Part shown: piece after piece, positions 1,524 to 25,600 of the stretch | Numbering within the stretch: position 1 is the stretch's first letter | Layout of the letters: every line of letters begins with the position of its first letter | DNA from: a virus | Virus record (IMG/VR): IMGVR_UViG_3300029319_000416 | Coordinates: 1-26,418 of that record | Length of the DNA: 26,418 bases | Direction: 5' to 3' (one strand) | Position numbers and translations under genes: made by a program | Notes under the pieces: model-generated | What the model was told of the DNA's origin: nothing | The model's input: the letters and a program-made list of their open reading frames with translations, nothing else | The model's database searches: none

Positions 1524-2240
1524 TTATGCCACCTTATTTGTCCATGTTTCAGACGACGTGCCTGCGTTAATTTGAGTCCAAGTATCACCTGTATGAGTAA
1601 TTTGAGTCCAGTTTTCGGTTGTTGCGCCTGCATCTATCTGTACCCAAAGTATATCACCATTCGTAGTTATGATAAATAGACTGTCCATTGTTTGTGAGGT
1701 AGTTAACAAAAACCCACCTAAAGTAGACATATCGAAAGAACTGTCTAACGAAACTACTGCTCGAAGTAATAAGCCACCTGTAGATGTTTGAGTGAAGTTT
1801 GCATCTAGTTCTGCAATGCCTGACGCAAGCAATTGTTGTGTTGTGGTTTGAGTAAAGTTTGCATCAACGCTAGAAACCCCTGACGCAATAAAAATCGGTG
1901 TGGACGTTTGAGTAAAGTTAGCGTCAACACTTGCAACACCGGAGGCTGTAAAGTTTGGCACGGTAGTCTGCGTAAAGTTAGCGTCAACACTTGCAACACC
2001 CACAGCTATAAGTTGTTGTGTCGTGGTTTGAGTAAAATTACTTGATAAATCTACTTCACCTATGAGAGTTCCCGCAGCGGCAGATATTTTTACAAACAGT
2101 GCCTCTAGCTCTGCGACTCCTGAAAAAGTAGCATTAGCAGAAGTTGTTTGCGTGAAATTTGCATCAACAGTTTCAGACCCAAAAAGTAAAATACCTTGGG
2201 TGGCAATAGGTGATTCTGATATTGCCTGAACGCCGAACAT
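1524..2240 (-). CDS. 20-residue tandem repeat fibre protein
   Basis: A 238-residue protein. Residues 21-200 consist of nine 20-residue units with the pattern G-V-A-S-V-D-A-N-F-T-Q-T-T, then a variable hydrophobic segment. Units 1 and 3 to 7 keep NFTQT, while units 2, 8 and 9 have drifted. Residues 201-238 have a second short repeat, with ENWTQI, DTWTQI and ETWTN. This looks like a rigid beta-solenoid or fibre shaft. AGGA lies close to the ATG. Similar repeat fibres occur in marine phages. The role is structural by composition, with no enzymatic motif. Confidence 0.8.
   Translation of the reverse strand: MFGVQAISESPIATQGILLFGSETVDANFTQTTSANATFSGVAELEALFVKISAAAGTLIGEVDLSSNFTQTTTQQLIAVGVASVDANFTQTTVPNFTASGVASVDANFTQTSTPIFIASGVSSVDANFTQTTTQQLLASGIAELDANFTQTSTGGLLLRAVVSLDSSFDMSTLGGFLLTTSQTMDSLFIITTNGDILWVQIDAGATTENWTQITHTGDTWTQINAGTSSETWTNKVA
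1641..2180 (-). repeat. Nine tandem 60-base repeats inside a fibre gene
   Basis: The coding units have an exact 60-base period over 540 bases. The best-kept part encodes VDANFTQT. Units 3 and 6 share TTTQQL(I/L)A, though two dissimilar units lie between them, so shuffling among units is suggested. Confidence 0.85.
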
Positions 2241-2245
2241 TGCTC

Positions 2246-2806
2246 CTAACCCAACGCCGTAATAGTTAAATTAGGTTGATGAAAGGTATTAGTTCCACCG
2301 CCATCAAAATAAACAGTGCTATGAAGTCTTCCTTCATTTGATGAACCATATTCCCTTGATTGAATTTTAAGAGTTTTTGCTGATGTCCATGTGGCTTGTC
2401 TACCAGTTGCGGTGTTTGCTGTGCCGCCAATAGGAATTACATACCTTAAACTTTGCATTACTTCTGGGTATTGCCCACTTATATTTAGCCTTTGATTTGT
2501 CACTTCATCTGAATCAATGTAAAACCTAAAATGAGCAATACCATTGGCATCTTTAAAAGCGAACTGACAATGAAAATCGTATATTACGCAAGTTGTTCCT
2601 GACGGTGGGGTATATGAAAGCTCAGAACCAGTTATAGTAGCGTAGCTAGTTGTTAATTCTTGTACCGCCGTAACATTTGTAGGAGTGTAAGTTCCACTAG
2701 AAACAGTGTAGTTTTGACCATCGCATATCATAGCGAGCTGTTCATTAACAATGCCACCAAGACTTCCGCCACCTATGAATGCCGCTAATTCTGCTGCTTT
2801 ACTCAT
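2246..2806 (-). CDS. Fibre-type virion protein
   Basis: A 186-residue protein starting MSKAAELAAFIGGGSLGGIV, a start type frequent in marine phage fibre genes. A beta-rich region follows (ITGSELSYTPPSGTTCVIYDF), then RFYIDSDEV, and a C-terminal block IQSREYGSSNEGRLHSTVYF that I recognise from related fibre proteins. It is probably a receptor-binding tip or a sheath subunit. The ATG at 2806 lies in the conserved junction with GGAG seven bases away; eight further upstream codons are not used. Confidence 0.75.
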   Translation of the reverse strand: MSKAAELAAFIGGGSLGGIVNEQLAMICDGQNYTVSSGTYTPTNVTAVQELTTSYATITGSELSYTPPSGTTCVIYDFHCQFAFKDANGIAHFRFYIDSDEVTNQRLNISGQYPEVMQSLRYVIPIGGTANTATGRQATWTSAKTLKIQSREYGSSNEGRLHSTVYFDGGGTNTFHQPNLTITALG

Positions 2807-3216
2807 GCTAGGTCTCCCATTGCGGAACATATAGAGCCTTTTGAATCAAAATAGGCTTTGCCAGCACCATCGCCTGAGTATGCAGTATTAAAAGGCCAAA
2901 AAGTTGTGGTTTTTGTTTGATAAGCATAAATATCATCGTCCATTGTTACCGCAACATATGCCGTATTTGTCGCAACAGTAGGCGCACCTGTAGTACACAT
3001 GTAAGTAGCACTGCTCATTGCAGAACTCCAATTTATACCACCAACCCCTGTATCTACATCTGTAAAAGAACTGGTGTTTAGTGAATCGACAATAGTATTA
3101 GTTAATTGATTCCAATAAGCATATCCTTTTGGAGTGCCGTTTGAAACCGTACTCATGGCAACAGAATTGTTACCGCTGGCATCCTTCAGGGTGTTTACTC
3201 TCAGTTCGCTTGCCAT
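2803..3216 (-). CDS. GDLA-family fibre protein, type C copy 2
   Basis: A 137-residue protein with MASELRVNTLKDASGNNSV, VSNGTPKGYAYW, DSLNTSSFTDVDTG and MSSATY, ending CSAMGDLA. It pairs with the gene at 5885-6265 by the V-x-NG-x2-K and DSLN motifs. It also has more aromatic residues near the end (FWPFNTAYSGDG). It is the last member of block 2 and its GDLA codons serve the unrelated 186-residue gene that follows. Confidence 0.78.
   Translation of the reverse strand: MASELRVNTLKDASGNNSVAMSTVSNGTPKGYAYWNQLTNTIVDSLNTSSFTDVDTGVGGINWSSAMSSATYMCTTGAPTVATNTAYVAVTMDDDIYAYQTKTTTFWPFNTAYSGDGAGKAYFDSKGSICSAMGDLA
2804..2817 (-). promoter_or_regulatory. GDLA junction: ribosome binding site and start
   Basis: GGAGACCTAGCATG, with ATGA stop/start overlap, between type C copy 2 and the 186-residue fibre gene. 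GGAG is seven bases from the ATG and encodes the Gly-Asp of GDLA. Confidence 0.8.
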
Positions 3217-3230
3217 TATGCTAAGTCTCC
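3214..3230 (-). promoter_or_regulatory. GDLA junction: ribosome binding site and start
   Basis: GGAGACTTAGCATAATG between type B and type C of block 2, with TAATG stop/start overlap. Confidence 0.8.
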
Positions 3231-3632
3231 GTTTGTCACAAGATGAACGGGGTCTTGGTCGTTATTTGCAGAACCATTATTATGAACAGAATGTATCCTG
3301 TCTACGCTTGTTGTTTGCGCTACCCCAGTAGAGCAAATATAAGAGTAAAAATTTGTTTCACTGGAACCTACGTTAGTTCCTGTAATTGGATGATTACTTG
3401 TATTTATATTATTTGTGTAAGTTATTGAATATTCTGCTGACCCGTGGTCAGTAAGAGTTGATACATTAAAACTTACATCAATAGAAACAGTGCCTGTTCC
3501 ATCAAAAGAAATAAACGCTTTTGCCAATCCCTGCTGCAAGTTGGTAGTCGTGCTGTTGCCCTCGCCTGTCACAGCAATAGACCCTGCGGTGGTTACACCC
3601 GTAATTGTATCTACCTTGAGTATGCTTGCCAT
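3216..3632 (-). CDS. GDLA-family fibre protein, type B copy 2
   Basis: A 138-residue protein with MASILKVDTITG, TAGSIAVTGEGN, TTNLQQGLAKAFISFDG and SFNVSTLTDHG, ending LVTNGDLA. The first 45 residues align closely with the gene at 6265-6714. The second half is different and shorter, with Asn, His and Ser. The start at 3632 lies in the junction sequence; the ten extra in-frame codons upstream belong to the previous gene's end. A fibre or appendage subunit by family. Confidence 0.8.
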   Translation of the reverse strand: MASILKVDTITGVTTAGSIAVTGEGNSTTTNLQQGLAKAFISFDGTGTVSIDVSFNVSTLTDHGSAEYSITYTNNINTSNHPITGTNVGSSETNFYSYICSTGVAQTTSVDRIHSVHNNGSANNDQDPVHLVTNGDLA

Positions 3633-3646
3633 TATGCGAGGTCTCC
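3630..3646 (-). promoter_or_regulatory. GDLA junction: ribosome binding site and start
   Basis: GGAGACCTCGCATAATG between type A and type B of block 2. It is identical over 17 bases to the junction at 6263-6279. Confidence 0.82.
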
Positions 3647-3988
3647 GTGTACTGTAGCACACTGTTTACTTGAGTCTGTTGCGCTATGTGAACTATTGTG
3701 GCTAGTATATCTAAAACCACCTGTCTGCATGTCTGTAAGCGTAACATGGTAATCATTAGAAACGCAGGAAACAGAATAATCATCATTAGCAAATGAATTT
3801 GTAGCATTTGGAAAAAGCGCACCTGCGTTTACATCAGTCAGACTAGAAACATTAAAACTGCCTTGCGTAGATACAGAGGAAGCACTGGTTGCTTGTATCC
3901 ACATTTTAGCAGCGTGTTGCTTAGTCAACCCAACAGGGCCAGTGCCAGCCTTATCAGCAATGGTATCTACATTCAGTACACTGGTCAT
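3632..3988 (-). CDS. GDLA-family fibre protein, type A copy 2
   Basis: A 118-residue protein with MTSVLNVDTIADKAG, LTKQHAAKMW and GSFNVSSLTDVNAG, ending TVHGDLA. The LTKQHAAK block is shared with the gene at 6711-7094, while the second half has diverged, with several His and Tyr. I placed the start at the ATG at 3988, coupled to the previous stop with GGAG upstream, rather than four codons earlier. The GDLA codons form the next ribosome binding site, the identical 17-base junction as at 6263-6279. Confidence 0.8.
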   Translation of the reverse strand: MTSVLNVDTIADKAGTGPVGLTKQHAAKMWIQATSASSVSTQGSFNVSSLTDVNAGALFPNATNSFANDDYSVSCVSNDYHVTLTDMQTGGFRYTSHNSSHSATDSSKQCATVHGDLA

Positions 3989-4443
3989 ACAATGCTCCAA
4001 TACCCGTTAACAGTCACGGTAGCAGACTGTGTGATCGGCCCTGCACTCAAGCCATTCTCATCGCTGTCAATCGTGATGTCTGCGCTGATGGTCTGACCGT
4101 TCAAACGAATGATGCTGTTGTTGCCCTTGAATGGGTAGCGAGTATCCGATTCAGTTTTGGTATATGAATTAGCCACAGAAAAGGTATCATAGATAACCAT
4201 CTCAACTACGTCATTGAGGCTTGCCCCTGTAACCAACACAACTGTTGTGCCTGTTGTAGCGGCATAGTCAGTCCCTGGTTTAAGCAAGACACCATTCTGA
4301 TATACATCCATGTACAGGCTGTCTTGATACGTCAAAACTTTACTGTCAGCATCGCTGCCGCTAAAAGAGGTTTGCCCCGCAGTTGCCTGATATACAAAGC
4401 GATTGCGAAAACCTACTGCTGGAGATTTACCTATATATGGCAT
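3985..4443 (-). CDS. MPYIG-type fibre protein, copy 2 (heads block 2)
   Basis: A 152-residue protein starting MPYIGKSPAVGFRNRFVYQA, then TSFSG and a YMDVYQNGVLLKPGTDYAAT strand pair (about 44-63). VVEMVIYDTFSVANSYTKTESD follows, and the end is LSAGPITQSATVTVNGYWSIV. This layout is very frequent in marine phage fibre proteins, where the TKTESDxRY part is often the collagen-like to trimer transition. It is related to the gene at 7091-7540 and likewise precedes three GDLA genes. Its stop overlaps the next start (ATGA). Confidence 0.8.
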   Translation of the reverse strand: MPYIGKSPAVGFRNRFVYQATAGQTSFSGSDADSKVLTYQDSLYMDVYQNGVLLKPGTDYAATTGTTVVLVTGASLNDVVEMVIYDTFSVANSYTKTESDTRYPFKGNNSIIRLNGQTISADITIDSDENGLSAGPITQSATVTVNGYWSIV

Positions 4444-4458
4444 TAGTCTTCCTTATAG

Positions 4459-5013
4459 TTATGAGGGATTTAATATCCCATAAATTTGAGCGGTTGACCC
4501 ATCCAAATTGCCACTAGCAACATAAATTCTAAAACCATTCTGTTCAGTCTCTGAGGTAAAAGCCCCAAGAGTCATTCCTGCGATATGATTTCCGCTACTG
4601 TTTTCTCCATTATACCAAATGGTCACACCTGTTCTCTTAGTGCTAATTTTTGGATTTATAAAATAAAACCAACCTGTCATATCTTCATTAGTACCCGCAC
4701 CACCATGACTAACTCGTAGTGATATGGCTGAAGTAGCATTTGAATTGCCATTGTTACTAGACGCTTCATTGGTAGTACCATAACCGTAACTACTAGAGCT
4801 AACTATTGAATTAGAACTGTCAAAAAACCTCATTCTTATGTCTGCGTCAGCGGTGGGTTTAATATGATAAAAAACCAGGTACTTATCATAAGCAGAAGAA
4901 GCCCCTGTCCAATCAAGATCTGTTGTTGAACTTCCTGCTGTAACTGTAGTTATCGGGACGTGTGCAACTGTATTTGCAGCAAAACCACCAGCCCTAACCT
5001 TTGTCAACGCCAT
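4459..5013 (-). CDS. Fibre-type beta-sandwich protein
   Basis: A 184-residue protein starting MALTKVRAGGFAANTVAHVP, followed by TVTAGSSTTDLDWTGASSAYDKYLVFYHI and a Ser/Asn-rich loop region. Strands such as ADIRMRFFDSS, GWFYFINP and GVTIWYNG suggest a jelly-roll or lectin-like domain, a usual form for receptor-binding tips. No catalytic residues are obvious. It lies directly before the second duplicated block. AAGGA is the ribosome binding site. Confidence 0.72.
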   Translation of the reverse strand: MALTKVRAGGFAANTVAHVPITTVTAGSSTTDLDWTGASSAYDKYLVFYHIKPTADADIRMRFFDSSNSIVSSSSYGYGTTNEASSNNGNSNATSAISLRVSHGGAGTNEDMTGWFYFINPKISTKRTGVTIWYNGENSSGNHIAGMTLGAFTSETEQNGFRIYVASGNLDGSTAQIYGILNPS

Positions 5014-5025
5014 ATCTACGTTTCC

Positions 5026-5397
5026 TTATGCGTAAGGACTATCACCAAGTACACTTGTATCCCAAGCTGCTTTCAGCTTCGCGATTGTATCTGCGTCTGT
5101 GATTGCTTGTGCGGCTGGTGCATCACGAAGAGCTTTCTTCTTATTTACAGAAGCAGTCTTTGCATCTGCATCATCAGCTTCTAATGCTTTCATGTACACT
5201 ACGTCTTCTGCATCGAGCAAAGGCGCACGAACTTCACGAATTTTGTCCTTGAAGATTTCTTTTGCCTTTGTCATATCTTCAGAGATGACTTTGCCATTCA
5301 AAGTCCATGCTCCACGAAAATGACGGTCTGATGGAACGGTAACAGTTGAGGCATCAACCTGATTGCCGTCCTTATCTACAATATAAGTTGTTGCCAT
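5026..5397 (-). CDS. Tail fibre assembly-type protein
   Basis: A 123-residue protein. The N-terminal part (VDKDGNQVDASTV, then SDRHFRGAWTLNGKVISEDM) resembles small phage tail assembly proteins. The rest is helical and charged: AKEIFKDKIREVRAPLLDAEDVVYMKAL (about 45-72), then VNKKKALRDAPA. Related proteins are encoded beside fibre genes and are regarded as assembly factors or tail chaperones. It has strong AAGGAG before the ATG. Together with the preceding gene it separates the two duplicated fibre blocks. Confidence 0.72.
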   Translation of the reverse strand: MATTYIVDKDGNQVDASTVTVPSDRHFRGAWTLNGKVISEDMTKAKEIFKDKIREVRAPLLDAEDVVYMKALEADDADAKTASVNKKKALRDAPAAQAITDADTIAKLKAAWDTSVLGDSPYA

Positions 5398-5408
5398 AGG
5401 GTTACTCC

Positions 5409-5885
5409 TTATGCGGCTACGATTTTATCAGTGGCTAGGTCTTCACTAATCTTCCAAGCATTACGCCACTCTCTTGTTGCTGGAAGCTGTTCTTTTTTGC
5501 ATATTACCAGTTTTGGCTTATTACCGCTATCCCACTCACGCCAAACGTGCTGGGGGCAGTCCTTCATTATGAGATATTCCAAGGCTTGCTCCTCTGTCAT
5601 AGCCTCAACGGGTTCTGTGTTGTGCAATAGATAGCCACGAGTATGTTTCTTAAAGTCTGGCTGGGCTTCGTCCTTGGCAAGTTCCCAGTACACCCAGACC
5701 GGGGGTAGAATACCGCCCTGCAATGCACAAGCCATCCAGTTTGGATCTGGTACGAGTATCTTAGCGCACTCGTCTATACTGTCTTCGTATACGACACGAT
5801 AGTCAGATTGATATGCTTCTAAGTTTTCTTTTGCCCAGCACAGTCTGTCCCATAAGTGTGTGCCTTGAAATTTTGGTGTGTCCAT
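5409..5885 (-). CDS. Conserved phage protein, possible fibre chaperone
   Basis: A 158-residue protein starting MDTPKFQGTHLWDRLCWAKE. It is rich in Trp (LPPVWVYWEL, HVWREWDSG) and charged residues, quite unlike the Ser/Thr/Gly-rich fibre genes around it. It ends in PATREWRNAWKISEDLA. The R-x-W-R-x-A-W motif resembles the RHFRGAWTL of the next gene. Such non-structural proteins inside a fibre cluster are often assembly chaperones, and that is my best guess. The start at 5885 uses the GDLA junction. Confidence 0.68.
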   Translation of the reverse strand: MDTPKFQGTHLWDRLCWAKENLEAYQSDYRVVYEDSIDECAKILVPDPNWMACALQGGILPPVWVYWELAKDEAQPDFKKHTRGYLLHNTEPVEAMTEEQALEYLIMKDCPQHVWREWDSGNKPKLVICKKEQLPATREWRNAWKISEDLATDKIVAA

Positions 5886-5899
5886 TATGCTAAATCTCC
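5883..5899 (-). promoter_or_regulatory. GDLA junction: ribosome binding site and start
   Basis: GGAGATTTAGCATAATG between type C of block 1 and the unrelated 158-residue gene. Silent changes at two codons keep GDLA. Confidence 0.8.
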
Positions 5900-6265
5900 C
5901 ATCACAATTATAGAACAACCATTTGTAGCATCAGTTGCACTGCTATTTGTAGAAACTTGATACGTTTGCACAGTTGCTTGAGAAGTTGAGGCAGTTTCTA
6001 TAGTTATTCTTCTGTTGTTAGATATAAATGCACATTGTCCAGCAGCATATAAGGCATTGCTCATGTTTGATGTAAAAAGCAAATCTGTTTCACCCGCACC
6101 CCCATCAACAATGCTGGCAATATTTAAACTATCACTTAAAGTATGTGTGCTGTCTTGAACTACTTTAGCCCAAGCCTTCGCACTACCATTGACAACAAAC
6201 TGCGTGTCAACCGACCCTGCGGTGCTGTGTTCTAGTTGGTCTGCTTTTATCTTTCCTAGAGCCAT
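5885..6265 (-). CDS. GDLA-family fibre protein, type C copy 1
   Basis: A 126-residue protein starting MALGKIKADQLEHSTAGSVD, with FVVNGSAKAWAKV, DSLNIASIVDGGAG, and FTSNM. It ends SIIVMGDLA. The V-x-NG-x2-K and DSLNxxS pattern pairs it with the gene at 2803-3216. It is the last of the three genes in block 1. Its GDLA codons provide the start site of the 158-residue gene that follows, which is not a family member, so the junction sequence is not tied to the family alone. Confidence 0.78.
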   Translation of the reverse strand: MALGKIKADQLEHSTAGSVDTQFVVNGSAKAWAKVVQDSTHTLSDSLNIASIVDGGAGETDLLFTSNMSNALYAAGQCAFISNNRRITIETASTSQATVQTYQVSTNSSATDATNGCSIIVMGDLA

Positions 6266-6279
6266 TATGCGAGGTCTCC
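6263..6279 (-). promoter_or_regulatory. GDLA junction: ribosome binding site and start
   Basis: GGAGACCTCGCATAATG between type B and type C of block 1. Confidence 0.82.
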
Positions 6280-6714
6280 AATTACTTGAATCGAACAAAA
6301 AGCGTAACCGTACTCATCAACGCTGGACGTATTAACATATCTATATACAAACCCACACCCTGTTGTGAGCATTTCTGTGGGGTTTGAATTAGTGTGTGCG
6401 CCAGACCTACACATAACTGACCTTAAAGTTGAGTCATTATCTAAACCACCAGTAGCCATATGTGACACAGAATAACGGTCAGCACTCATGTTACTTGTGT
6501 AGGCATTATCCCATAAACCTGCGCCATCGTCCGTTGTAGAACTAATGTTAAACGAAGTAGTTGTTCCAGTGGTAGTTTGATAAGCATCAATAGTTGCGAA
6601 TGCTTTTATCAATCCGTTTTGCAGATTAGTTGTCGCGCTGCCACCTTCACTTGTTACAGCAATAGAGCCAGCAGTGCTTGTACCAGTGAGCGTGTTTACA
6701 AGAATGGTACTCAT
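6265..6714 (-). CDS. GDLA-family fibre protein, type B copy 1
   Basis: A 149-residue protein that starts at the ATG at 6714, inside the conserved junction; a longer in-frame reading lacks support. Residues 1-40 hold STILVNTLTG, TAGSIAVTSEGG and TTNLQNGLIKAFATID. The central motif is SFNISSTTDDGAG with YTSNM. It ends CSIQVIGDLA. The N-terminal 40 residues closely match the gene at 3216-3632. The middle has extra length and three Cys. Likely a virion appendage subunit. Confidence 0.8.
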   Translation of the reverse strand: MSTILVNTLTGTSTAGSIAVTSEGGSATTNLQNGLIKAFATIDAYQTTTGTTTSFNISSTTDDGAGLWDNAYTSNMSADRYSVSHMATGGLDNDSTLRSVMCRSGAHTNSNPTEMLTTGCGFVYRYVNTSSVDEYGYAFCSIQVIGDLA

Positions 6715-7094
6715 GCTAGGTCTCCGAAAACAGCGATACATACATCTGAATCTACATAAGAACCAGTGTTTACTCTTAAATTACCGCAACCTGTTCTGCC
6801 ACTTGTGTACGAATCTGGAACTCCGGCCCAGTTAGTAACAAAATTATTATAAGCATTGTCGTTGGAAGAACCTACAGATGAAAAGGTTGCGCCATCCATA
6901 TTGCTTGTAAAATTAAAACCATACTGCCCTACAGCATCATCTAAAACTGAACTAATATTAAAACTGCCATGTTGAGTAGTCGTTGAACCACCACCGCTAT
7001 CCAATGATGACCATGCCTTTGCCGCATGTTGCTTAGTCAGCGTAGCTGCACCACCAGATGTACTCTGAATTGTATCTGCTTTTAACGTACTCAT
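6711..7094 (-). CDS. GDLA-family fibre protein, type A copy 1
   Basis: A 127-residue protein with the N-terminal signature STLKADTIQ, then LTKQHAAKAW at about residues 19-28, SFNISSVLDDAVG (about 44-56), and FTSNM. The C terminus is VFGDLA. The LTKQHAAK part matches the gene at 3632-3988 and marks them as the same paralogue type. Codons for GDLA form the ribosome binding site of the next gene. It is probably a small beta-sandwich subunit of a tail fibre or appendage. Confidence 0.8.
   Translation of the reverse strand: MSTLKADTIQSTSGGAATLTKQHAAKAWSSLDSGGGSTTTQHGSFNISSVLDDAVGQYGFNFTSNMDGATFSSVGSSNDNAYNNFVTNWAGVPDSYTSGRTGCGNLRVNTGSYVDSDVCIAVFGDLA
6712..6725 (-). promoter_or_regulatory. GDLA junction: ribosome binding site and start
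   Basis: GGAGACCTAGCATG between type A and type B of block 1, in the ATGA form, identical to the one at 2804-2817. Confidence 0.82.
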
Positions 7095-7540
7095 AGCGTC
7101 ACCAATGTACCACCAGACTCAACGGTGAGTGTCACACCGCTGGCTACTGTAAGTGGTCCTGTTACGTTAGCGTTTTCTGTTGCCAGAATAGTTGTGTTAG
7201 ATGTAAGAGATTGTGCGTTGGTACGAAACATACCACCAGCTTTGAAGTTGCCCTTGTTTTCCGCAGGAGGAACAACTGTGCTTGCTTGTGGAGCAAGATA
7301 ATTTACAAAAATATTGCCTGTGCCAGAAGAAGGGGCTTCGGTAAATGTAAGAGTAGTTCCGTCTGGAATTGTGTAAGCAGCTGTATCTTGTACAACACCA
7401 TCAACAGACACTAATACATCTTGCACAGAAGATACTGTAGTGGTTAATGTAAACGTAGTGTCGCTGCCGTCTCCATTAAACCTTTGTACAGCTTTGATGG
7501 CCTGATAAGACCCTGGAACTTTTTGACCTATGTACGGCAT
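7091..7540 (-). CDS. MPYIG-type fibre protein, copy 1 (heads block 1)
   Basis: A 149-residue protein with start MPYIGQKVPGSY, then QRFNGDGSDTTFTLTTTVSS and a strand-rich domain with DVLVSVDGVVQDTAAYTI (about 41-58). A C-terminal part with NVTGPLTVASGVTLTVESGG looks like a short beta-helix or fibre. It is related to the 152-residue gene at 3985-4443, which shares the MPYIG start, the V-x-G-V strand pair and a GPxT end. It is followed by three GDLA genes in the same order as that copy. Its stop overlaps the next start (ATGA). Confidence 0.78.
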   Translation of the reverse strand: MPYIGQKVPGSYQAIKAVQRFNGDGSDTTFTLTTTVSSVQDVLVSVDGVVQDTAAYTIPDGTTLTFTEAPSSGTGNIFVNYLAPQASTVVPPAENKGNFKAGGMFRTNAQSLTSNTTILATENANVTGPLTVASGVTLTVESGGTLVTL

Positions 7541-7549
7541 TATCCATCC

Positions 7550-7876
7550 TTATGAGCTAATAGTGTCTACAACAGAAACCCAAACATCTGCACTGCTTGC
7601 CGTATCGCTCTGGACCTTTAATACATCATTATTTTGCATTACTATTTTGGCCCCACCGTCTAATACTTGTAATGCTGATCCAACGGGTATAGGCGCATCT
7701 TTAATGATGTAATAATCATTAGACCCATCGTTAATAAATACATCCATCAAAATTTGGGAAGTCGTTACGTTAGCGATATTAATCCCTATAAGAGCATCAT
7801 CAGAGTTTGCTGTACGCATGGTCACAGCACTCGTGCCCACGTTTCGTGCAATGTTTCTTTCAAAATCCTGCGCCAT
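7550..7876 (-). CDS. Small conserved virion protein
   Basis: A 108-residue protein starting MAQDFERNIARNVG. Strand-rich segments follow (ALIGINIANVTTSQILMDVFIN, then YYIIKDAPIPVGSAL, and GAKIVMQNNDVLKVQSD). The pattern is that of a single beta-sandwich domain frequent next to fibre genes of marine phages. It has no Cys or catalytic motif. It has a full AAGGAG ribosome binding site. It may form a collar or trimeric cap, but that is only inference. Confidence 0.75.
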   Translation of the reverse strand: MAQDFERNIARNVGTSAVTMRTANSDDALIGINIANVTTSQILMDVFINDGSNDYYIIKDAPIPVGSALQVLDGGAKIVMQNNDVLKVQSDTASSADVWVSVVDTISS

Positions 7877-7886
7877 AATTTACTCC

Positions 7887-8429
7887 TTAGAGGGCAATCG
7901 CCATAGCCACTGCAAAACCAGCCGTTGCTCCTGTAGACGGCAAATTAGTCAACTGTGATCCATCTACTGCGGGTAGCCTAGCAGAGCCGTCAAGTATAAC
8001 AATCTTGTTTGCTGAAGTGCCCGTGTCTATTCTTGCAACAGGCACTGTTCCAGAAGCTATGTTACTGCCATTTAAAGCAGTTAATGCGCTTCCATTTGCT
8101 GCTACCAGATTACCACTAGCGTCTAAAAAAGACATCTTTTCTGCTGGCAATGTACAGAAAATAGTGCGAGTCCCTGAAGTCCAACTTACCGCACTGTCAG
8201 AATTACTAGACTGGAGGATTGTGGTACGAGCCAAGGTTGTACCAGATGCCGTGTAAGTCCCAACTCCTATTTCAAAGTCAGTTCCATCTGTGCAAGCATA
8301 GAAAGTGGTGTTTCCATCACCTATTTGACTGAACGCTTCGAAACCAGTAAACGCACCCGCGAGCGTATATGTACCCGTGCCTGTGGTGGTTGTAGTTTCT
8401 TTTATTCGGTCTTTTATGACCAGTGCCAT
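7887..8429 (-). CDS. Virion protein with VKDRxKETTTTTG-type domain
   Basis: A 180-residue protein with IKDRIKETTTTTGTGTYTLA at residues 4-23, then GFEAFSQIGDGNTTFYACTDG, YTASGTTLARTTILQSSNS, and FCTLPAEK. This is a domain I recognise from tail or receptor-binding proteins of many marine phages and some temperate phages. The remaining 75 residues (VAANGSALTALNGSNIASG) are a fibre-like repeat region with a hydrophobic end. A receptor or baseplate-associated role is likely but not specified. Confidence 0.78.
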   Translation of the reverse strand: MALVIKDRIKETTTTTGTGTYTLAGAFTGFEAFSQIGDGNTTFYACTDGTDFEIGVGTYTASGTTLARTTILQSSNSDSAVSWTSGTRTIFCTLPAEKMSFLDASGNLVAANGSALTALNGSNIASGTVPVARIDTGTSANKIVILDGSARLPAVDGSQLTNLPSTGATAGFAVAMAIAL

Positions 8430-12136: not shown

Positions 12137-12505
12137 TCAAAATTGCACTACAGACCCACTTGTTCTTTTTCTTCTGCCATTCATCACTGCGCCGCATCCC
12201 CTAGCAACAGCCGTGCCAGCCACCTTTTTACCCCTAAAAGGCCGTTTGACGGGGCCTCCATCTGCGAGCTTTGTAACTTTTGCTCGTTTTGTATTAGATA
12301 CCACTGTCTTGCCTTTTGCTCCCGCTCTCTTTTTCTTTCTTGCTGTAGACGCTCTTTCAGCTTTTGAGAGGCTTCTAGCTTTTGAAGCTGGTAGGCAGCG
12401 GTCTGGGTTTTTCTTGTCTTTGGATGTCCCACATTTACCCTTAATGCTTCCATCAGTACCAATCCGAACCCAATTTTGATTTAACCATTTTTTTAACTCT
12501 CCCAT
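12137..12505 (-). CDS. Basic protein with CG...RC motif and GGPV tail
   Basis: A 122-residue protein. Residues 1-16 (MGELKKWLNQNWVRIG) are helical. The segment KGKCGTSKDKKNPDRCLPASKARSLSKAERA holds two Cys and is followed by a very basic stretch. The C-terminal third reads LADGGPVKRPFRGKKVAGTAVARGCGA and ends in a basic segment, GRRKR. This Cys-pair plus GGPV layout is known from small basic marine-phage proteins of unknown role. DNA binding is plausible from charge, and zinc binding by the Cys residues is uncertain. Confidence 0.78.
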   Translation of the reverse strand: MGELKKWLNQNWVRIGTDGSIKGKCGTSKDKKNPDRCLPASKARSLSKAERASTARKKKRAGAKGKTVVSNTKRAKVTKLADGGPVKRPFRGKKVAGTAVARGCGAVMNGRRKRTSGSVVQF

Positions 12506-12795
12506 CAGGCTCTTCCTTGTTGTCTGCGTATTGCTTCTTTTCCAGCTTTGGCTATTTTAGCCTGTTCAGGTTTCCCTGCAACTTTTGCCCTTTGTTCCAA
12601 AACTGTAAGTATTTGTATCTTTCTAGCAAATGGTTTTTTTATTTTTTTAACTTTTGCCACTGTTGATCTTGCATCCGCAGGCGTAGCAAACTTTATAGAT
12701 ACGGTGTCTTTAGGGTTTTCATCTGTGTATAGCCGCCTACCACTTCCTTTTGGCTTTTTTCCTGTTCCAACAACAGGGTCTTTTTTCTTTGCCAT
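12505..12795 (-). CDS. Small basic conserved phage protein
   Basis: A 96-residue protein beginning MAKKKDPVVGTGKKPKGSGR, then RLYTDENPKDTVSIKFATPADARSTV, and a Lys/Arg-rich helical end. I recognise the first half as a well-conserved block in marine phage genomes with no assigned function. The RLYTDENP segment is the most constant part. It has no Cys or membrane helix. The position within the basic-protein cluster suggests a virion or DNA-associated role. The end overlaps the next start as ATGA. Confidence 0.8.
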   Translation of the reverse strand: MAKKKDPVVGTGKKPKGSGRRLYTDENPKDTVSIKFATPADARSTVAKVKKIKKPFARKIQILTVLEQRAKVAGKPEQAKIAKAGKEAIRRQQGRA

Positions 12796-13083
12796 TTACT
12801 TACCTTTACGTTTGCCACCCTTAGATTTTTTAGCATAATTAGGGTCTTTACAATACTTTGATGCAGCCAAGTTTGCATATGCGCTTGGGTATGTATCAAA
12901 GGTGCGCTTTGCCCAAGCCTTACCTTCAGGGCATATTTTACTCCCTTTTGATTTTTTTGAAGCTGCGCCTCCCTTTCGGAAGTAACTCAAACCTTTTGGA
13001 GTAGGATTACCTTTCATTTTTTTACGACCTTTCATCGGGGGCTTGGATATTTGGTTTGCGAGTTGTCCACGCGATATCGTCAT
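12796..13083 (-). CDS. Small basic protein with paired Cys
   Basis: A 95-residue protein that starts MTISRGQLANQI, recalling the capsid protein's MAISRAQLAKEL, then becomes strongly Lys-rich. The conserved-looking part is ICPEGKAWAKRTFDTYPSAY followed by a second Cys in SKYCKDP. It contains FRKGGAASKK, one of several Gly-Gly motifs shared by proteins in this region. GGAGAGGG just upstream of the ATG supports this start despite the long overlap with the preceding gene. Function unknown. Confidence 0.75.
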   Translation of the reverse strand: MTISRGQLANQISKPPMKGRKKMKGNPTPKGLSYFRKGGAASKKSKGSKICPEGKAWAKRTFDTYPSAYANLAASKYCKDPNYAKKSKGGKRKGK

Positions 13084-13252
13084 TTACCCTCTCCTGCAGA
13101 TAAAAATCCCATAATTCAGCTAAAAGCTTATGATTTTGATCAACTTTAACAGAGATAACTGCCGTTTCTGTTTTTAATTCAACAACAGAAAAAGCAATCC
13201 AACCTATGAAAGCCAAACTCGCGCCACTTATCAAAGTGCTTATGTTTAACAT
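13022..13252 (-). CDS. Small membrane protein, single N-terminal helix
   Basis: A 76-residue protein with a membrane helix at about residues 8-24 (ISGASLAFIGWIAFSVV), then a charged helical part (KTETAVISVKVDQNHKLLAELW). Two ATGs are close: the one at 13258 abuts GGAG, while the one at 13252 has it six bases upstream and is preferred. Single-anchor proteins like this occur with lysis genes, but this one lies among basic virion-type proteins. It overlaps the next gene by 62 bases in a different frame, the largest overlap here. Confidence 0.65.
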   Translation of the reverse strand: MLNISTLISGASLAFIGWIAFSVVELKTETAVISVKVDQNHKLLAELWDFYLQERVNDDIAWTTRKPNIQAPDERS

Positions 13253-13530
13253 TTCCATCTCCGACGAGCCTGACGTAAACGACTATTTGGATTTTTTGCA
13301 GCTTTGGGAAACTTTTTCATTTGTCCAGCACTACGAGCACAAAAGGATTTGCGACGTTTTGCGTCTTTTGAGCCCTTTTTTACTTTTCCTGTGACGGCAG
13401 TTTTTAACTTGGACCCAGGGTTGGCTCTTCTGTACGCAGCCACACCTGCCTTTGTCATTCCCGCCCCAGCTTTTGTAGGGCGGAAATTCTTTTTGTTTCG
13501 CTTCGGCATCTTATCGTTACGCGAAGCCAT
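13246..13530 (-). CDS. Small highly basic protein with SFCAR motif
   Basis: A 94-residue protein rich in Lys and Arg. The conserved order is GMTKAGVAAYRRANPGSKLKTAVTGKVKKGSK, then AKRRKSFCARSAGQ, and a C-terminal NSRLRQARRRWKC. The same layout is found in small proteins of marine T7-like and T4-like phages. It has two Cys only. No enzyme motif is visible; binding to DNA or RNA is a reasonable guess from charge. The end overlaps the next gene's start, whose ATG lies in the terminal WKC codons. Confidence 0.78.
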   Translation of the reverse strand: MASRNDKMPKRNKKNFRPTKAGAGMTKAGVAAYRRANPGSKLKTAVTGKVKKGSKDAKRRKSFCARSAGQMKKFPKAAKNPNSRLRQARRRWKC

Positions 13531-15462: not shown

Positions 15463-16110
15463 TTATATGCCAGTGCTTGCCGCTGTAGTCTGAGAATCAG
15501 AGCTAGAGCATGGAGCATTATGGTGGAAGTTAAAGCGAACTATATAGTTCACTCCTGCCGCATCAAAATCAAGATTTGCGTCATCACCTGTAAGGCCAAC
15601 AACACGCATGATTAAGGTGGCTGTGGTTGCAACTGTTGAAATATCCATTTCAGCAGTAGAACGACCAGTTGCGGTTGAACCAGAAGTTCCGTTTGCCAAA
15701 GAGACATTAGCAAAGATGTTTGTCAGAGCAGTTGCACGATCAGTTGAGCTGCCGTCTGCGGCAATCATAAACAACTGATTAGGGTTGTCTGCTACAAAAG
15801 CTTTCACAGGAAAGTTTGTATCGACGCTTACATTATTGGAACCAGGCCAATAATTTTTGAAGACAGTCTTCTTAGAAGTGTCATCAACGTATTCAACGCC
15901 CATCAGGACCCCAAGAGCAGGAACAGTACCACCGTTTGCTGCACCAACAATGTCAATAACCCCCGCAGCCAGTGGAATCACTGGCGAGTTTTGGAAGATT
16001 GCATTGGTGTTGTTCGATGCGATCTCATATTGAGTCACACCAGTAGTGTTTGCACCTGCACCTGTTAAGCCAATTGGACGCAGACCAAAAGCAGTATCTT
16101 GGTTTGCCAT
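15463..16110 (-). CDS. Capsid-associated structural protein (decoration candidate)
   Basis: A 215-residue protein with the start MANQDTAFGLRPIG, seen in head-associated proteins of many phages. The rest is rich in Ala, Thr, Asn and Gly with alternating hydrophobic residues, as in a beta-rich virion protein. A capsid decoration or head-stabilising role is likely from its place between the scaffold region and the major capsid gene. It could instead be a minor capsid subunit. GGAG is followed by an A-tract directly into the ATG, suggesting strong translation. Confidence 0.78.
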   Translation of the reverse strand: MANQDTAFGLRPIGLTGAGANTTGVTQYEIASNNTNAIFQNSPVIPLAAGVIDIVGAANGGTVPALGVLMGVEYVDDTSKKTVFKNYWPGSNNVSVDTNFPVKAFVADNPNQLFMIAADGSSTDRATALTNIFANVSLANGTSGSTATGRSTAEMDISTVATTATLIMRVVGLTGDDANLDFDAAGVNYIVRFNFHHNAPCSSSDSQTTAASTGI

Positions 16111-17520: not shown

Positions 17521-17955
17521 TCAAACGTGTAAAATGTCTTCAGGATCAGATATCTTAGCAAGAATTTCATCATCGTTAAGTATCCGAACCTCGCCACCTT
17601 CAATCTTAAAGCGAGAACCCGCATACCTTGCGAAAATAACCCAATCTCCTTTGTTGCACCAAGTGCCCAAAGGAAACTTGTTTTTATCTTCGTAAGCAAG
17701 AGGTCCCACTTTAAGGACATAACCCACCTGAGTGGATATTTCTTGATTTGCTAATATCTGGTCTGGAAGCAAAACGCCTCCTTCCGTTTTACCTTTACCC
17801 TTGTAAGGGAGAACCAGTATACGCCAGCCTGTAGGATCTGGCATTCTATCTAATAGCGATTTATCAATTTTAGAAGGGTCGAGCACACGTTCTGAGGGAT
17901 GTACCCAGGGAGAAGACGGTTTGTCTTCATTTGTAGCTTTGACTGCATCAGTCAT
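17521..17955 (-). CDS. GroES-like co-chaperonin (Cpn10 fold)
   Basis: A 144-residue protein. Residues about 43-140 follow the GroES pattern: GWRILVLPY as first strand, a flexible loop (51-60) leading to GGVLLPD at 59-65, then a GYVLKVGP strand and GDWVIFARYAG. The hydrophobic VLL of the loop would dock on the GroEL apical domain. The N-terminal 42 residues are an extra extension absent from cellular GroES, which is about 95 residues. A phage co-chaperonin directly before scaffold and capsid genes suggests help in folding the capsid protein with host GroEL, as T4 gp31 does. AGGAG lies eight bases before the ATG. Confidence 0.85.
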   Translation of the reverse strand: MTDAVKATNEDKPSSPWVHPSERVLDPSKIDKSLLDRMPDPTGWRILVLPYKGKGKTEGGVLLPDQILANQEISTQVGYVLKVGPLAYEDKNKFPLGTWCNKGDWVIFARYAGSRFKIEGGEVRILNDDEILAKISDPEDILHV

Positions 17956-22673: not shown

Positions 22674-25600
22674 TTATTGCATATGTTTGATAAATTGTGC
22701 GATACCAGCCTTTACAGGACCACCTTTTGCAAACTTGACCGCAGGGTTGTCACGAACCGATATGTCTTTGAAAGGGGTCGTGGGCCGCGAGGTGTATTCC
22801 CCCACCTTCTGTTTAAGGTCGTCTTTTCGCTTTTTAGAAGGACGAGCATCAATAAACGTGTCTTGAAAAGCGGCCCGCCGTTCACGGCTCATGTTCTTAA
22901 CTACATTGTCAGGATGCAACAAAGCTATGTCTTCAATAGCTTTGAGAGCTCTTTTCTCTGCTTTTTGAATGTCCCTGTGCAATTGATTAAACTTTTTACC
23001 TACCTCAGAGTTATCAATCGCATGTAAATAACCCTTTGTAATCCTGTCTTGTTGCTTTGCTAAGTCCATAATCAAAGGATATATACTTCCGGGCGTTGAC
23101 CTTGCCGCTTCTTCTTCAAACTTAGCGACAGTCATCTCACCGTCTCGAACTCTTTTTAACCTTCTCAATATGCCATTGACCTTCATCTGTCCTTCAGCCG
23201 TATTCAAAGCATTTCCAAGCTCGTCTGACACAACAGCAAGGTTGCCATCAGGGGTCTCATAGGTAAAAAACTTGTGCCCAGGGTCTTGCCGCAGTTTGTT
23301 TTGTATTTCTTGGTACCTGGCTTTATTCGCAGGAGACGGATTGTTTTTCATAATAGTTTCTTGAATTTCAAGATCAGTTAAAAGTTGTCGCATGTCAAAA
23401 GGCAGTTCAAATTCAATGGTATTTCCGTATTGGACTGAAAAATACTTTTCAGTGCCGTCAGGCAAGACTTCATCTAAAGCCTTCTTATAGTGTATGGTTG
23501 ACGTTTTTTTGACAGCATCGTGCATGAAAGCCTCGCCTTTGCCCATATCCGCGAGTCGCGTATACTCAGAAAGGGCCTGTACAAACTCGTCTGCCACTGC
23601 CGTGCCATAAGTTTCTTCCAATTTAGTCCTGTCAAACTTTCCTACTTGGGGCCGAAGAAAGGCATCGGTGATGTTGCCTTTGCCTTTAAACTCGCCTTCG
23701 CCTCTGACCATCTGTCCAAGATAGTAAATGCTTTCATTTGCCGCCGCGTCCTTGGCTGCAGCCCCACTGGTTGACTCCAAACTCTCGTGAAGCTTTCTCA
23801 TATTACCACCAAAGTCCTGTTGGAAATTGTTACCTTTAGCACCAAAAGAATCTCTAATCGCGTTTACAGCGTCTTGAATATTGTCGTATGCCCGGTCATT
23901 TAAGGTAGAAATTCGAACCAAGTTTAACAGTTCGCCATCTGTCATACTCCGAACCTTAAACAAGTCTTTAAGGCCCCGCTCCATATTACGCAGAAACCCC
24001 GTTGAAGTTCGAGTAGGGGCACTTGTAATAATGTTCTCGCCGCCAATATGCACTTCTGACTCAAAATAACGAGAATTTGGTTTTTTCAAAGCCATTTTAT
24101 CCGCAGGGTAAGACGTCATTAAATACTGTGCAGGAGACAGGTTGTGAATGTCATCTACAGTAATCCCCCCTAAAAAATCAGGGTTAGGATAAGCTACTAA
24201 CAAAGCGGAAGGGTCTCTGAACGCCAATCCTCGACGGCCTGGATCACCTGCAAACCTTGTGAACGACATCATAGGATCGTATGATAAAGAAAATCCTGGC
24301 CTTCTAACCTCTGCACTTGCTGCAGCAGCCCCTGTCAAAGACTCCCGCAGTACATTATCAAATCCTGCTGCTTTAACTAATTCTGTTCGTGGTATGAAAA
24401 CACCAGTTTTTGATTTGTCAGGGTCTCTAAATTTTTCTGCAAGTTCCTCTAGTGTAAGACTGTTACCAATCTCCTCATTTTTTACAAAAATACTTTCTGG
24501 AAACTGTTCTAAAGAGTTTTTCTTTGTGTAGGTCACCCCGTGTGCAAGGCCCCGTATGCCCCCTGCCCCAACTTTTAGCTGGCGTAAAACCTCATCTGAA
24601 ACACCGCCCGTCCTACGGCTTTCTTGTATTTGGCTTTTTTGTACACCTGCCGCTATACGAGGACCAAAAGATGCTACGCCTTGGTCAAAAAGCTCTGGGT
24701 TTTCGTCTACTGCTCTGTCTACTGCATCGAGCTCATCAAGGCTTACATCCGTATCCGCAACATTTTCTTTGCGAAGGTCTATGGGATGCAAAGATTTATG
24801 AATACCCCTCGCAAATCCTTTGTTTGTAAACCTTTGCATTACCATGTTAGCTTCAACTTCACCGTACATGGTATAATATTGTTTCAAAGCTAACTCGAAA
24901 ATTTCTTCATCAAGTACAAATTCACCCTCGCTATCCTGAGTATTACGACCCGCACGTTGCATAAGGTCATCATACATTTGCATTACGGCCCCGCCTCCTG
25001 GGGCTTGCTCTATTGCCTGAATTGCATGTTGTATTTCATGCAATAAATTTTCTGTAAAATCGGCTGCGTCTACAGTGTCTCCTACGGCAATGGTTGGTTC
25101 TCCAAAAATACCTTCCTGTAGGTAAAAAGCCCCCGTCCTTACGGGTTCTCCTCCAATTATTTGTGTATCAGACTCAAGTCTCGCAATCCTTAAATCTTTA
25201 AGCTCCGGGTATTCTGCAAACAATTCTGGAAAATCAATTACTTCTGATAAAAGAGGAGACCTGCCCATATCAGGTTTCCCATCTGGAAACTTTGCAGTCA
25301 TTCTATCCAATTGAACCCTGCCGTCATCCAAAGTTCTGTAGGTCATTACGTCTTTTTTAATGCCGAACAGCCCGTCTTCAGGAGAAATTCTTAAATAATC
25401 CTTTATTGCACTGCCTTGTTGACCTGGAGGAGTTTCACCGGGGGTGCTCCCATATTCTTTTCCAAATTTAAGTTTGACATTAGCCGTTGGTATCTCAAAT
25501 CTAAACGCCTCCAAGTCGCTTGGGAAAACATCAGAGTCAAAATAAGACATATTCGCTCTGAAAATGTCCTCCTTGCTTCTGCCCATAGCTCGCATGGATT

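What the first reader, a model, noticed from the sequence alone, without database searches (positions are those of the whole stretch)
2803..7540. Collinear duplication of a four-gene tail-fibre block
An MPYIG-type gene followed by three GDLA-ending genes occurs twice, in the same order. Position by position the N-terminal parts match: LTKQHAAK(A/M)W in type A, TAGSIAVT(S/G)EG plus TTNLQ(N/Q)GL(I/A)KAF in type B, and V-x-NG-x2-K with DSLN in type C. The second halves differ. This points to block duplication followed by divergence of the exposed ends, giving one phage two sets of related fibre parts, perhaps for two hosts or a hetero-oligomeric appendage.
Basis: partly seen in the sequence, partly recalled or inferred. 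Interest (0 to 1): 0.82.

Follow-up and report, generated by a model that had tools for sequence, protein, structure and literature searches.

The report
Phage tail with swappable plug-in tips
A marine phage carries a row of seven to eight small tail-tip genes; in each, a short conserved start marks its position in the row, while the rest is swapped freely between positions and between unrelated phages, probably to keep up with changing bacterial surfaces.

Summary
M-A-B-C occurs twice in the same order (M1-A1-B1-C1 and M2-A2-B2-C2), with three other genes between. The reading "block duplication, then divergence of the ends" is half right. The duplication is ancient: over 100 IMG/VR contigs and the SAR116 phage HMO-2011 share the arrangement, on at least three backbones; this phage has an HTVC023P-like backbone and apparently gained the cassette by a crossover inside gene 7887-8429. 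A tree of the N-terminal regions groups by type (A1 with A2, B1 with B2, C1 with C2) and by slot. The C-terminal ~100 residues carry no slot signal: near-identical ends sit behind different N-termini, with DNA identity stopping at the 'AK-A-W' codons and at the 'GDLA' stop. The ends were swapped, not diverged in place. Slots V and 7 keep their N-terminal tag even when the attached fold is unrelated. 'GDLA' encodes GGAGA, a likely ribosome-binding site for the next gene. The cargo model is a beta-sandwich resembling tailspike tips and H-type lectins (weak, Z<7). Best explanation: an array of peptide-docked, interchangeable receptor-binding tips; docking and receptor binding are inferred. Close in kind to Ackermannviridae tailspike swapping and Klebsiella phage docking peptides.

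The parts
7887..8429 (-). O180, gene carrying the apparent left crossover of the cassette: residues 1-112 are of the HTVC023P-type backbone, residues 132-180 of the HMO-2011 type (gp43 C-terminus)
   Evidence: 85-88% identity to backbone relatives over residues 1-107/112; 84% to HMO-2011 gp43 residues 545-593 over residues 132-180. The switch lies between about 8093 and 8037.
7550..7876 (-). N108, fixed gene at the head of the cassette
   Evidence: 94% identical to HMO-2011 gp42; precedes M1 in most of the contigs
7091..7540 (-). M1, probable fibre anchor of block 1 (T7 gp17-like N-terminal domain)
   Evidence: PF03906 Phage_T7_tail 30.6 bits against cut-off 25.2; 89% to HMO-2011 gp41
6711..7094 (-). 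A1 = slot 1: tag MSTLKADTIQS + LTKQHAAK, then cargo domain, GDLA end
   Evidence: its cargo is 77% identical to a slot-4 protein of locus L331; AlphaFold model
6265..6714 (-). B1 = slot 2: tag MSTILVNTLTG + TAGSIAVTSEGGSATTNLQNGLIK, then cargo
   Evidence: its cargo is 63% identical to a protein of locus L083 that bears a slot-3 tag
5885..6265 (-). C1 = slot 3: tag MALGKIKADQLEH + VVNGSAK, then cargo
   Evidence: 51% to HMO-2011 gp37 over the N-terminal 76 residues
5409..5885 (-). Z, the most conserved cassette gene; function unknown
   Evidence: 81% to HMO-2011 gp36; confident model without a structural match
5026..5397 (-). Y, fixed gene, weakly like tail fibre assembly proteins
   Evidence: 72% to HMO-2011 gp35; phrog_4912 tail fiber assembly E 0.0014
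4459..5013 (-). X184 = slot V: tag MALTKVRAGG with a cargo that is not of the GDLA family
   Evidence: slot-V tag shared with GDLA-, gp39-, gp28-, C1q- and H-type occupants of the same slot in other phages
3985..4443 (-). M2, probable fibre anchor of block 2
   Evidence: 86% to HMO-2011 gp33; homologous to M1 by profile comparison, E 1.9e-14
3632..3988 (-). A2 = slot 4: tag MTSVLNVDTIADK + LTKQHAAK, then cargo
   Evidence: 47% to HMO-2011 gp32
3216..3632 (-). B2 = slot 5: tag MASILKVDTITG + TAGSIAVTGEGNSTTTNLQQGLAK, then cargo
2803..3216 (-). C2 = slot 6: tag MASELRVNTLKD, then cargo
   Evidence: its cargo is 99% identical to slot 6 of loci L104/L106
2246..2806 (-). H194 = slot 7: tag MSKAAELAAFIG with a cargo that is not of the GDLA family; last gene of the cassette
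   Evidence: slot-7 tag shared by gp28-, gp39-, H- and GDLA-type occupants; the next gene (1524-2240) is backbone again, 58-59% to L173/L185
6708..6725 (-). A1/B1 junction GGAGACCTAGCATGAGTA: GDLA codons, ribosome-binding site GGAGA and overlapping ATGA; right edge of the slot-1 cargo module
   Evidence: copies also at 2800-2817, 3213-3230, 3629-3646, 5882-5899, 6262-6279

Best explanation
The region is a host-recognition cassette that builds an array of small tail tips with exchangeable ends. M1 and M2 (T7-gp17-like anchors, products of an old M-A-B-C block duplication) each head a set of three tip genes; with slot V (here X184) and slot 7 (here H194) this makes eight ports. Each tip protein has a slot-specific N-terminal tag (about 10 residues, plus a linker up to a conserved K-A-W), which I infer docks it at one site of the adsorption apparatus, and a C-terminal receptor-binding domain of about 100 residues (beta-sandwich, lectin/tailspike-tip-like), probably a homotrimer. 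Recombination at the short shared flanks (the AK-A-W codons upstream, GGAGACCTNGCATRA downstream) moves cargo domains singly between slots and between phages, while the tags stay under purifying selection. The GDLA end doubles as the ribosome-binding site of the next, overlapping gene, so that the tips are translated as a coupled series. Shown from sequence: ancient duplication, fixed order, tag specificity, cargo shuffling with sharp DNA edges, ribosome-binding-site coding, transfer between unrelated backbones. Inferred: docking by the tags, trimers, glycan binding, host = SAR116 or kin.
For: Fixed order N-M1-[3]-Z-Y-V-M2-[3]-7 in dozens of contigs and in the isolate HMO-2011, on g45-g44-g43, Q-Pn-O and other backbones. 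Tag region: nearest neighbour in the same slot 94.6% of 572; cargo: 30.4% of 575, chance about 16%. Tree of tags: 7 label changes against 46.6 shuffled; tree of cargo: 45 against 46.5. First 11 residues alone identify the slot in 86% of 277 unique tags; when the neighbour must have a different cargo class, slot V is still right in 88 of 90 and slot 7 in 25 of 27. Cargo >=85% identical across slots: DNA identity ends at a median of -3 (different tag type) or +23 (same tag type) nt from the cargo start and +2 or +1 nt from the stop; same-slot controls run on 89 and 60 nt. Contigs with M1 >=97% identical have tags 82-95% and cargo 32-33% identical (medians). Tag codons pN/pS 0.20-0.58 in seven of eight slots, with pS 0.46-0.69. 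Gly of GDLA is GGA in about 97% against 24% background, Ala is GCA in about 95% against 41%. Cargo fold: top PDB matches phiAB6 tailspike tip Z 6.9, Pam1 tailspike 6.2, AP22 gp53 5.2, Helix lectins 4.7-4.8; BFVD matches to cyanophage tail fibres from E 1.5e-7.
Against: No experiment shows these proteins on the virion or binding a receptor. The PDB matches are below Z 8. The tags' binding site is unknown; Z and Y are unexplained. Cargo keeps some slot preference (30% against 16% by chance), so exchange is not wholly free. Slot patterns were examined on the same data that suggested them. Most sequences are metagenomic, though the isolate HMO-2011 shows the same cargo-slot mixing (its slot-1 cargo is 70% identical to a slot-5 protein).
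Confidence: 0.72

Rival explanations
1. One reading: one block duplication, then in-place divergence of the exposed ends, so that the phage carries two related fibre sets (two hosts or a hetero-oligomer).
For: The N-terminal regions do pair by type across the two blocks.
Against: Ends show no A-A, B-B or C-C relation. Ends 85-100% identical sit in different slots, with sharp DNA edges. The two-block layout is old and shared.
Confidence: 0.1
2. The tags are passengers: they are conserved only because crossovers fall downstream of them, and they have no docking role; the proteins attach by another part.
For: The cargo module's left edge lies just after the tag and linker, and in loci L097, L141 and L143 the slot-7 tag is fused to the unrelated protein Z.
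Against: Tag codons vary at synonymous sites (pS 0.46-0.69) but much less at amino-acid-changing sites (pN 0.11-0.19 in slots 1, 4, 5, 6 and 7), which indicates selection on the peptide. Unrelated cargo folds in slots V and 7 all bear the tag.
Confidence: 0.15
3. A, B and C form an obligate hetero-oligomeric tip (one A-B-C unit per anchor), and cargo exchange only tunes its surface.
For: Three tag types per block, fixed order and translational coupling would suit equal stoichiometry.
Against: 24 of 111 M1..Z blocks have something else than three GDLA genes, mostly a C1q-, gp39-type or unknown protein in the middle slot with A and C kept; 28 of 31 contig pairs that share cargo share exactly one. 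This argues against an intimate interface between cargo domains, not against heteromers of the tag regions.
Confidence: 0.12
4. Assembly artefact: chimaeric metagenomic contigs produce the apparent slot switching.
For: The junction sequence is repeated at every gene end.
Against: Shared flanks are about 15-25 nt, shorter than usual assembly words (my knowledge); cargo in the isolate HMO-2011 matches other slots at 61-70%, too diverged to be a mix-up; the pattern holds across many projects.
Confidence: 0.04

Closest known systems
Puniceispirillum phage HMO-2011 gp28-gp42 tail fibre cluster (NC_021864)
   Same: Same gene order; fixed genes 72-94% identical; same N-terminal tags at the same positions
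   Different: Other occupants of slots 2, V, 5 and 7 (gp39 + chaperone gp38; a GDLA gene; C1q gp31 + chaperone gp30; gp28); cargo of the shared slots differs; different phage backbone (HMO-2011 coat protein gp47 and amidase gp44 find nothing in the window)
Ackermannviridae tailspikes TSP1-4 (PMC8432352)
   Same: Several receptor-binding proteins per phage with type-specific N-termini; the same receptor module 91-100% identical on different TSP types; conserved motif at the swap edge
   Different: Up to four large beta-helix tailspikes joined through gp10-like XD domains; here seven to eight slots, cargo of about 100 residues, swap edges at both sides, overlapping genes, and sharing between unrelated backbones
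Klebsiella phage RBP systems with docking peptides (KP32, KP34, Menlow, PhiK64-1 groups; K1-5/SP6; PMC6872550)
   Same: Secondary RBPs attach by conserved N-terminal peptides as short as 7-11 residues, e.g. MALxxLV in KP34viruses
   Different: Depolymerase tailspikes; peptides differ between phage groups; no report found there of a cargo pool shared by many slots
Shared host-recognition modules of distantly related Alteromonas phages A5/V22 (PMC10579305)
   Same: Whole recognition module passed between unrelated phages
   Different: One fibre plus chaperone, no array of slots
Metaviromic islands of marine phages (PMC3909814)
   Same: Hypervariable host-recognition genes, including tail fibre, C1q and lectin-like genes; conserved N-terminus and variable C-terminus
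   Different: No slot-specific tags or cargo moving between slots described in the passages read

Membership tests
PHROG 11355 (tail fiber protein) | Profile match | tested here: met
   All six GDLA proteins match, E 2.7e-14 to 1.2e-3
Phage_T7_tail PF03906 (T7 gp17 N-terminal domain) | Score above the curated cut-off | tested here: met
   M1 30.6 bits against cut-off 25.2
Phage_T7_tail PF03906 (T7 gp17 N-terminal domain) | The same for M2 | tested here: not met
   M2 has no PF03906 match, though it is homologous to M1 by profile comparison
HMO-2011-type phage | HMO-2011 structural backbone (coat, amidase) | tested here: not met
   Of the HMO-2011 genes gp26-gp48 only the cassette genes, plus a weak gp45 match, hit the window
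HMO-2011-type phage | HMO-2011-type family A DNA polymerase | not testable with these tools
   The window is a 26 kb fragment without replication genes
HTVC023P-type phage | Portal of the HTVC023P/HTVC027P lineage | tested here: met
   about 50% identity over 95-97% of the portal
HTVC023P-type phage | PolA and multi-gene clade placement (PMC9599517) | not testable with these tools
   Those genes are not in the window
Ackermannviridae-like TSP complex | gp10-like XD domains that join the tailspikes | tested here: inconclusive
   No such Pfam domain found in the cassette proteins scanned, but only by Pfam
Ackermannviridae-like TSP complex | Receptor module found on different N-termini | tested here: met
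Diversity-generating retroelement | Reverse transcriptase | tested here: not met
   No RVT_1 match in the window; the record is a fragment, so absence from the whole genome is not shown
Invertible shufflon | Inverted repeats flanking alternative ends | tested here: not met
   Junction repeats are direct; only two weak inverted pairs, 71% and 82% complementary
Gp53-like_C / H-type-lectin-like tip fold | Structural match to AP22 gp53 or Helix agglutinin | tested here: inconclusive
   Z 5.2 and 4.8; one of 107 family members matches PF21882 at E 0.0046

The most novel reading that the evidence does not exclude
A positional docking code: about eight mutually exclusive N-terminal peptides, each specifying one port of the adsorption apparatus, used in common by several unrelated marine phage lineages that draw on one pool of more than a thousand small receptor-binding domains, moved singly as DNA modules whose right edge doubles as a ribosome-binding site.
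Probability: 0.4. Interest if true: 0.8.

Novelty: new variant of a known kind. Interest (0 to 1): 0.64.

Why it matters
If true, host range in several abundant marine phage groups evolves by plugging interchangeable tips into a fixed multi-port array rather than by slow change of one fibre. That makes testable how a phage can try many surface glycans at once, gives short tags and swap edges usable to recognise such tips in metagenomes, and offers a handle on host prediction: among the isolates in the phage collection the most conserved cassette gene (Z) was found at over 80% identity only in the SAR116 phage HMO-2011, although its relatives on Roseobacter and SAR11 are in the same collection.

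Tried and rejected
DGR: no reverse transcriptase in the window. Shufflon: no matching inverted repeats. Near relatives among sequenced phages by DNA: none. B1 against phages and plasmids: none. B1 scan of viral contigs found one relative only, because the short patterns fell in the variable part; M1, Z and M2 gave the survey. Genome-contig scan with Z: only distant hits (Methylocystaceae, Microvirga, Cohaesibacteraceae, two others), no help for the host. PDB sequence search of the tips: nothing. Fold of Z: confident model, no match reported in PDB or BFVD. Avoidance of duplicate cargo within one phage: 0 of 874 pairs share 60 or more identical residues, but under one would be expected by chance, so no conclusion. 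A literature search found no description of this slot system in the held library; most subscription journals are not held, and the HMO-2011 genome paper could not be read.
Full report
What is there. The window is a 26.4 kb virus record. Its portal is about 50% identical to those of the pelagiphages HTVC023P and HTVC027P. In the tail region, read on the - strand, the gene order is O180, N108, M1, A1, B1, C1, Z, Y, X184, M2, A2, B2, C2, H194, then R238 and other genes. M1-A1-B1-C1 and M2-A2-B2-C2 are the two blocks of the finding. The pairwise similarities are real (B 66 bits, A 31, C 18, M 18), and all six GDLA genes belong to one family. With the window alone the C pair is weak. With relatives, a tree of the N-terminal regions pairs slots 1 and 4, 2 and 5, 3 and 6.

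Where it comes from. From the last 49 codons of O180 to H194 the region is collinear with genes gp43 to gp28 of phage HMO-2011, which infects the SAR116 strain IMCC1322. The fixed genes are 72-94% identical (N108 94%, M1 89%, M2 86%, Z 81%, Y 72%), while the tips share at most their N-terminal parts. Outside the cassette HMO-2011 matches nothing here except a weak gp45 hit. O180 is a chimaera: residues 1-112 follow the HTVC023P-type relatives, residues 132-180 follow gp43. So a whole recognition cassette appears to have been exchanged between unrelated phages, the left crossover being in O180 and the right one between H194 and R238 (R238 is backbone again). Its close backbone relatives (portal 97-99% identical) carry more distant versions of the module.

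Survey. Scans with M1, Z and M2 and gene-order annotation show the order N-M1-[three]-Z-Y-[V]-M2-[three]-[7] in dozens of contigs. There are 111 M1..Z blocks; 87 of them hold exactly three GDLA genes, and most of the rest have another protein in the middle slot (C1q, gp39-type or unknown, sometimes with a small gene; HMO-2011's gp38 and gp30 are PF16778 tail assembly chaperones). The genes upstream of N show several backbones.

Tags against cargo. I cut each of 575 GDLA proteins at the conserved K before the A-W position. The nearest relative of the N-terminal part lies in the same slot in 94.6%, that of the C-terminal part in 30.4% (chance about 16%). Trees of the two parts for twelve contigs need 7 and 45 label changes, against 46.6 and 46.5 for shuffled labels. 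Of cargo pairs at 70% identity or more between contigs, 94 are across slots and 50 within a slot, and 28 of 31 contig pairs that share cargo share exactly one. In cross-slot pairs the DNA identity ends at the edges of the cargo: a median of -3 or +23 nt at the left (different or same tag type) and +2 or +1 nt after the stop codon, whereas same-slot pairs run on for 89 and 60 nt. The window itself shows this: A1's cargo is 77% identical to a slot-4 protein, and B1's is 63% identical to a protein with a slot-3 tag. The isolate HMO-2011 shows it too: its slot-1 cargo is 70% identical to a slot-5 protein.

The tag is independent of the fold. Occupants of slot V begin M[AP]LT[KQ].. and those of slot 7 MSKAAELAALIG, whether the rest is GDLA-type, gp39-type, gp28-type, C1q-type or H-type. 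If the nearest tag is sought only among proteins of another cargo class, slot V is found in 88 of 90 and slot 7 in 25 of 27. The class patterns were noticed in these data before being counted, so the percentages are descriptive. Tag codons vary at synonymous sites but little at replacement sites (pN/pS 0.20-0.58 except slot 3, where a register shift spoils the count), which speaks for selection on the peptide.

The GDLA end. Gly is GGA in about 97% against 24% elsewhere in these genes, Ala is GCA in about 95% against 41%, and the next ATG overlaps the stop (ATGA or TAATG). GGAGA with a 7-10 nt spacer is a good ribosome-binding site. The leucine codon varies while leucine is kept, so the ending is probably held by protein function as well. 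The same 15-18 nt are the right edge of the exchanged module and recur at every junction as direct repeats.

Fold. The AlphaFold2 model of A1 (pLDDT 78.8, pTM 0.66) is a beta-sandwich. The best PDB alignments are tips of phage tailspikes and fibres and H-type lectins, at Z 4.2-6.9, below the level at which fold identity can be claimed. Predicted viral structures match from E 1.5e-7, many of them tail fibres of cyanophages. Z gives a confident model with no match.

How it most likely works. M1 and M2 anchor fibres; tags place the tips; cargo domains meet receptors, probably surface glycans. Docking, oligomeric state and ligand are inferred from Klebsiella phages, whose secondary receptor-binding proteins are thought to attach by 7-11-residue N-terminal peptides (PMC6872550), and from Ackermannviridae, where one receptor module occurs on different tailspike types (PMC8432352). 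Host: cassette gene Z was found at over 80% identity only in HMO-2011 among isolates, although HMO-2011-like phages of Roseobacter and SAR11 are in the same collection. SAR116 or kin is therefore a reasonable but single-isolate guess.

Novelty. The principle (tagged, swappable receptor-binding proteins) is known. New as far as the held literature shows: seven to eight slots with their own tags, small cargo moving singly between all of them, an edge that doubles as a ribosome-binding site, and use by several unrelated marine phage lineages. Limits: metagenomic contigs, no virion data, weak structural matches.

Noticed in passing
L097, L141, L143 (gene Z): In contigs with a single M2-type block directly before Z, the Z protein starts with the slot-7 tag (MSKAAELAAETP...), a tag fused to a protein that is not a tip.
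   Followed up: partly
window 1524-2240 (-): R238 is built of imperfect repeats of about 20 residues around SVDANFTQTT (motif starts at residues 26, 66, 86, 106, 126, 146, 166).
   Followed up: no
window 22674-26198 (-): 1174-residue protein with an HEIQH motif, as in zinc metalloproteases.
   Followed up: no
window 12137-13530 (-): Four small, very basic proteins (lysine/arginine-rich, 94-122 residues) in a row next to the structural genes.
   Followed up: no
window 17521-17955 (-): 144-residue protein that looks like a co-chaperonin GroES by eye; HTVC023P has an annotated GroES in the same region.
   Followed up: no
Dunaliella viridis virus SI2 (NC_023841) 15521-15916: A record labelled as an algal virus encodes a Z homologue at 45% identity; it looks more like a bacteriophage.
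   Followed up: no
window 3985-4015 (-): M2 ends in WSIV, whose codons TGG AGC also spell GGAG just before the overlapping start of A2, the same device as in GDLA.
   Followed up: partly
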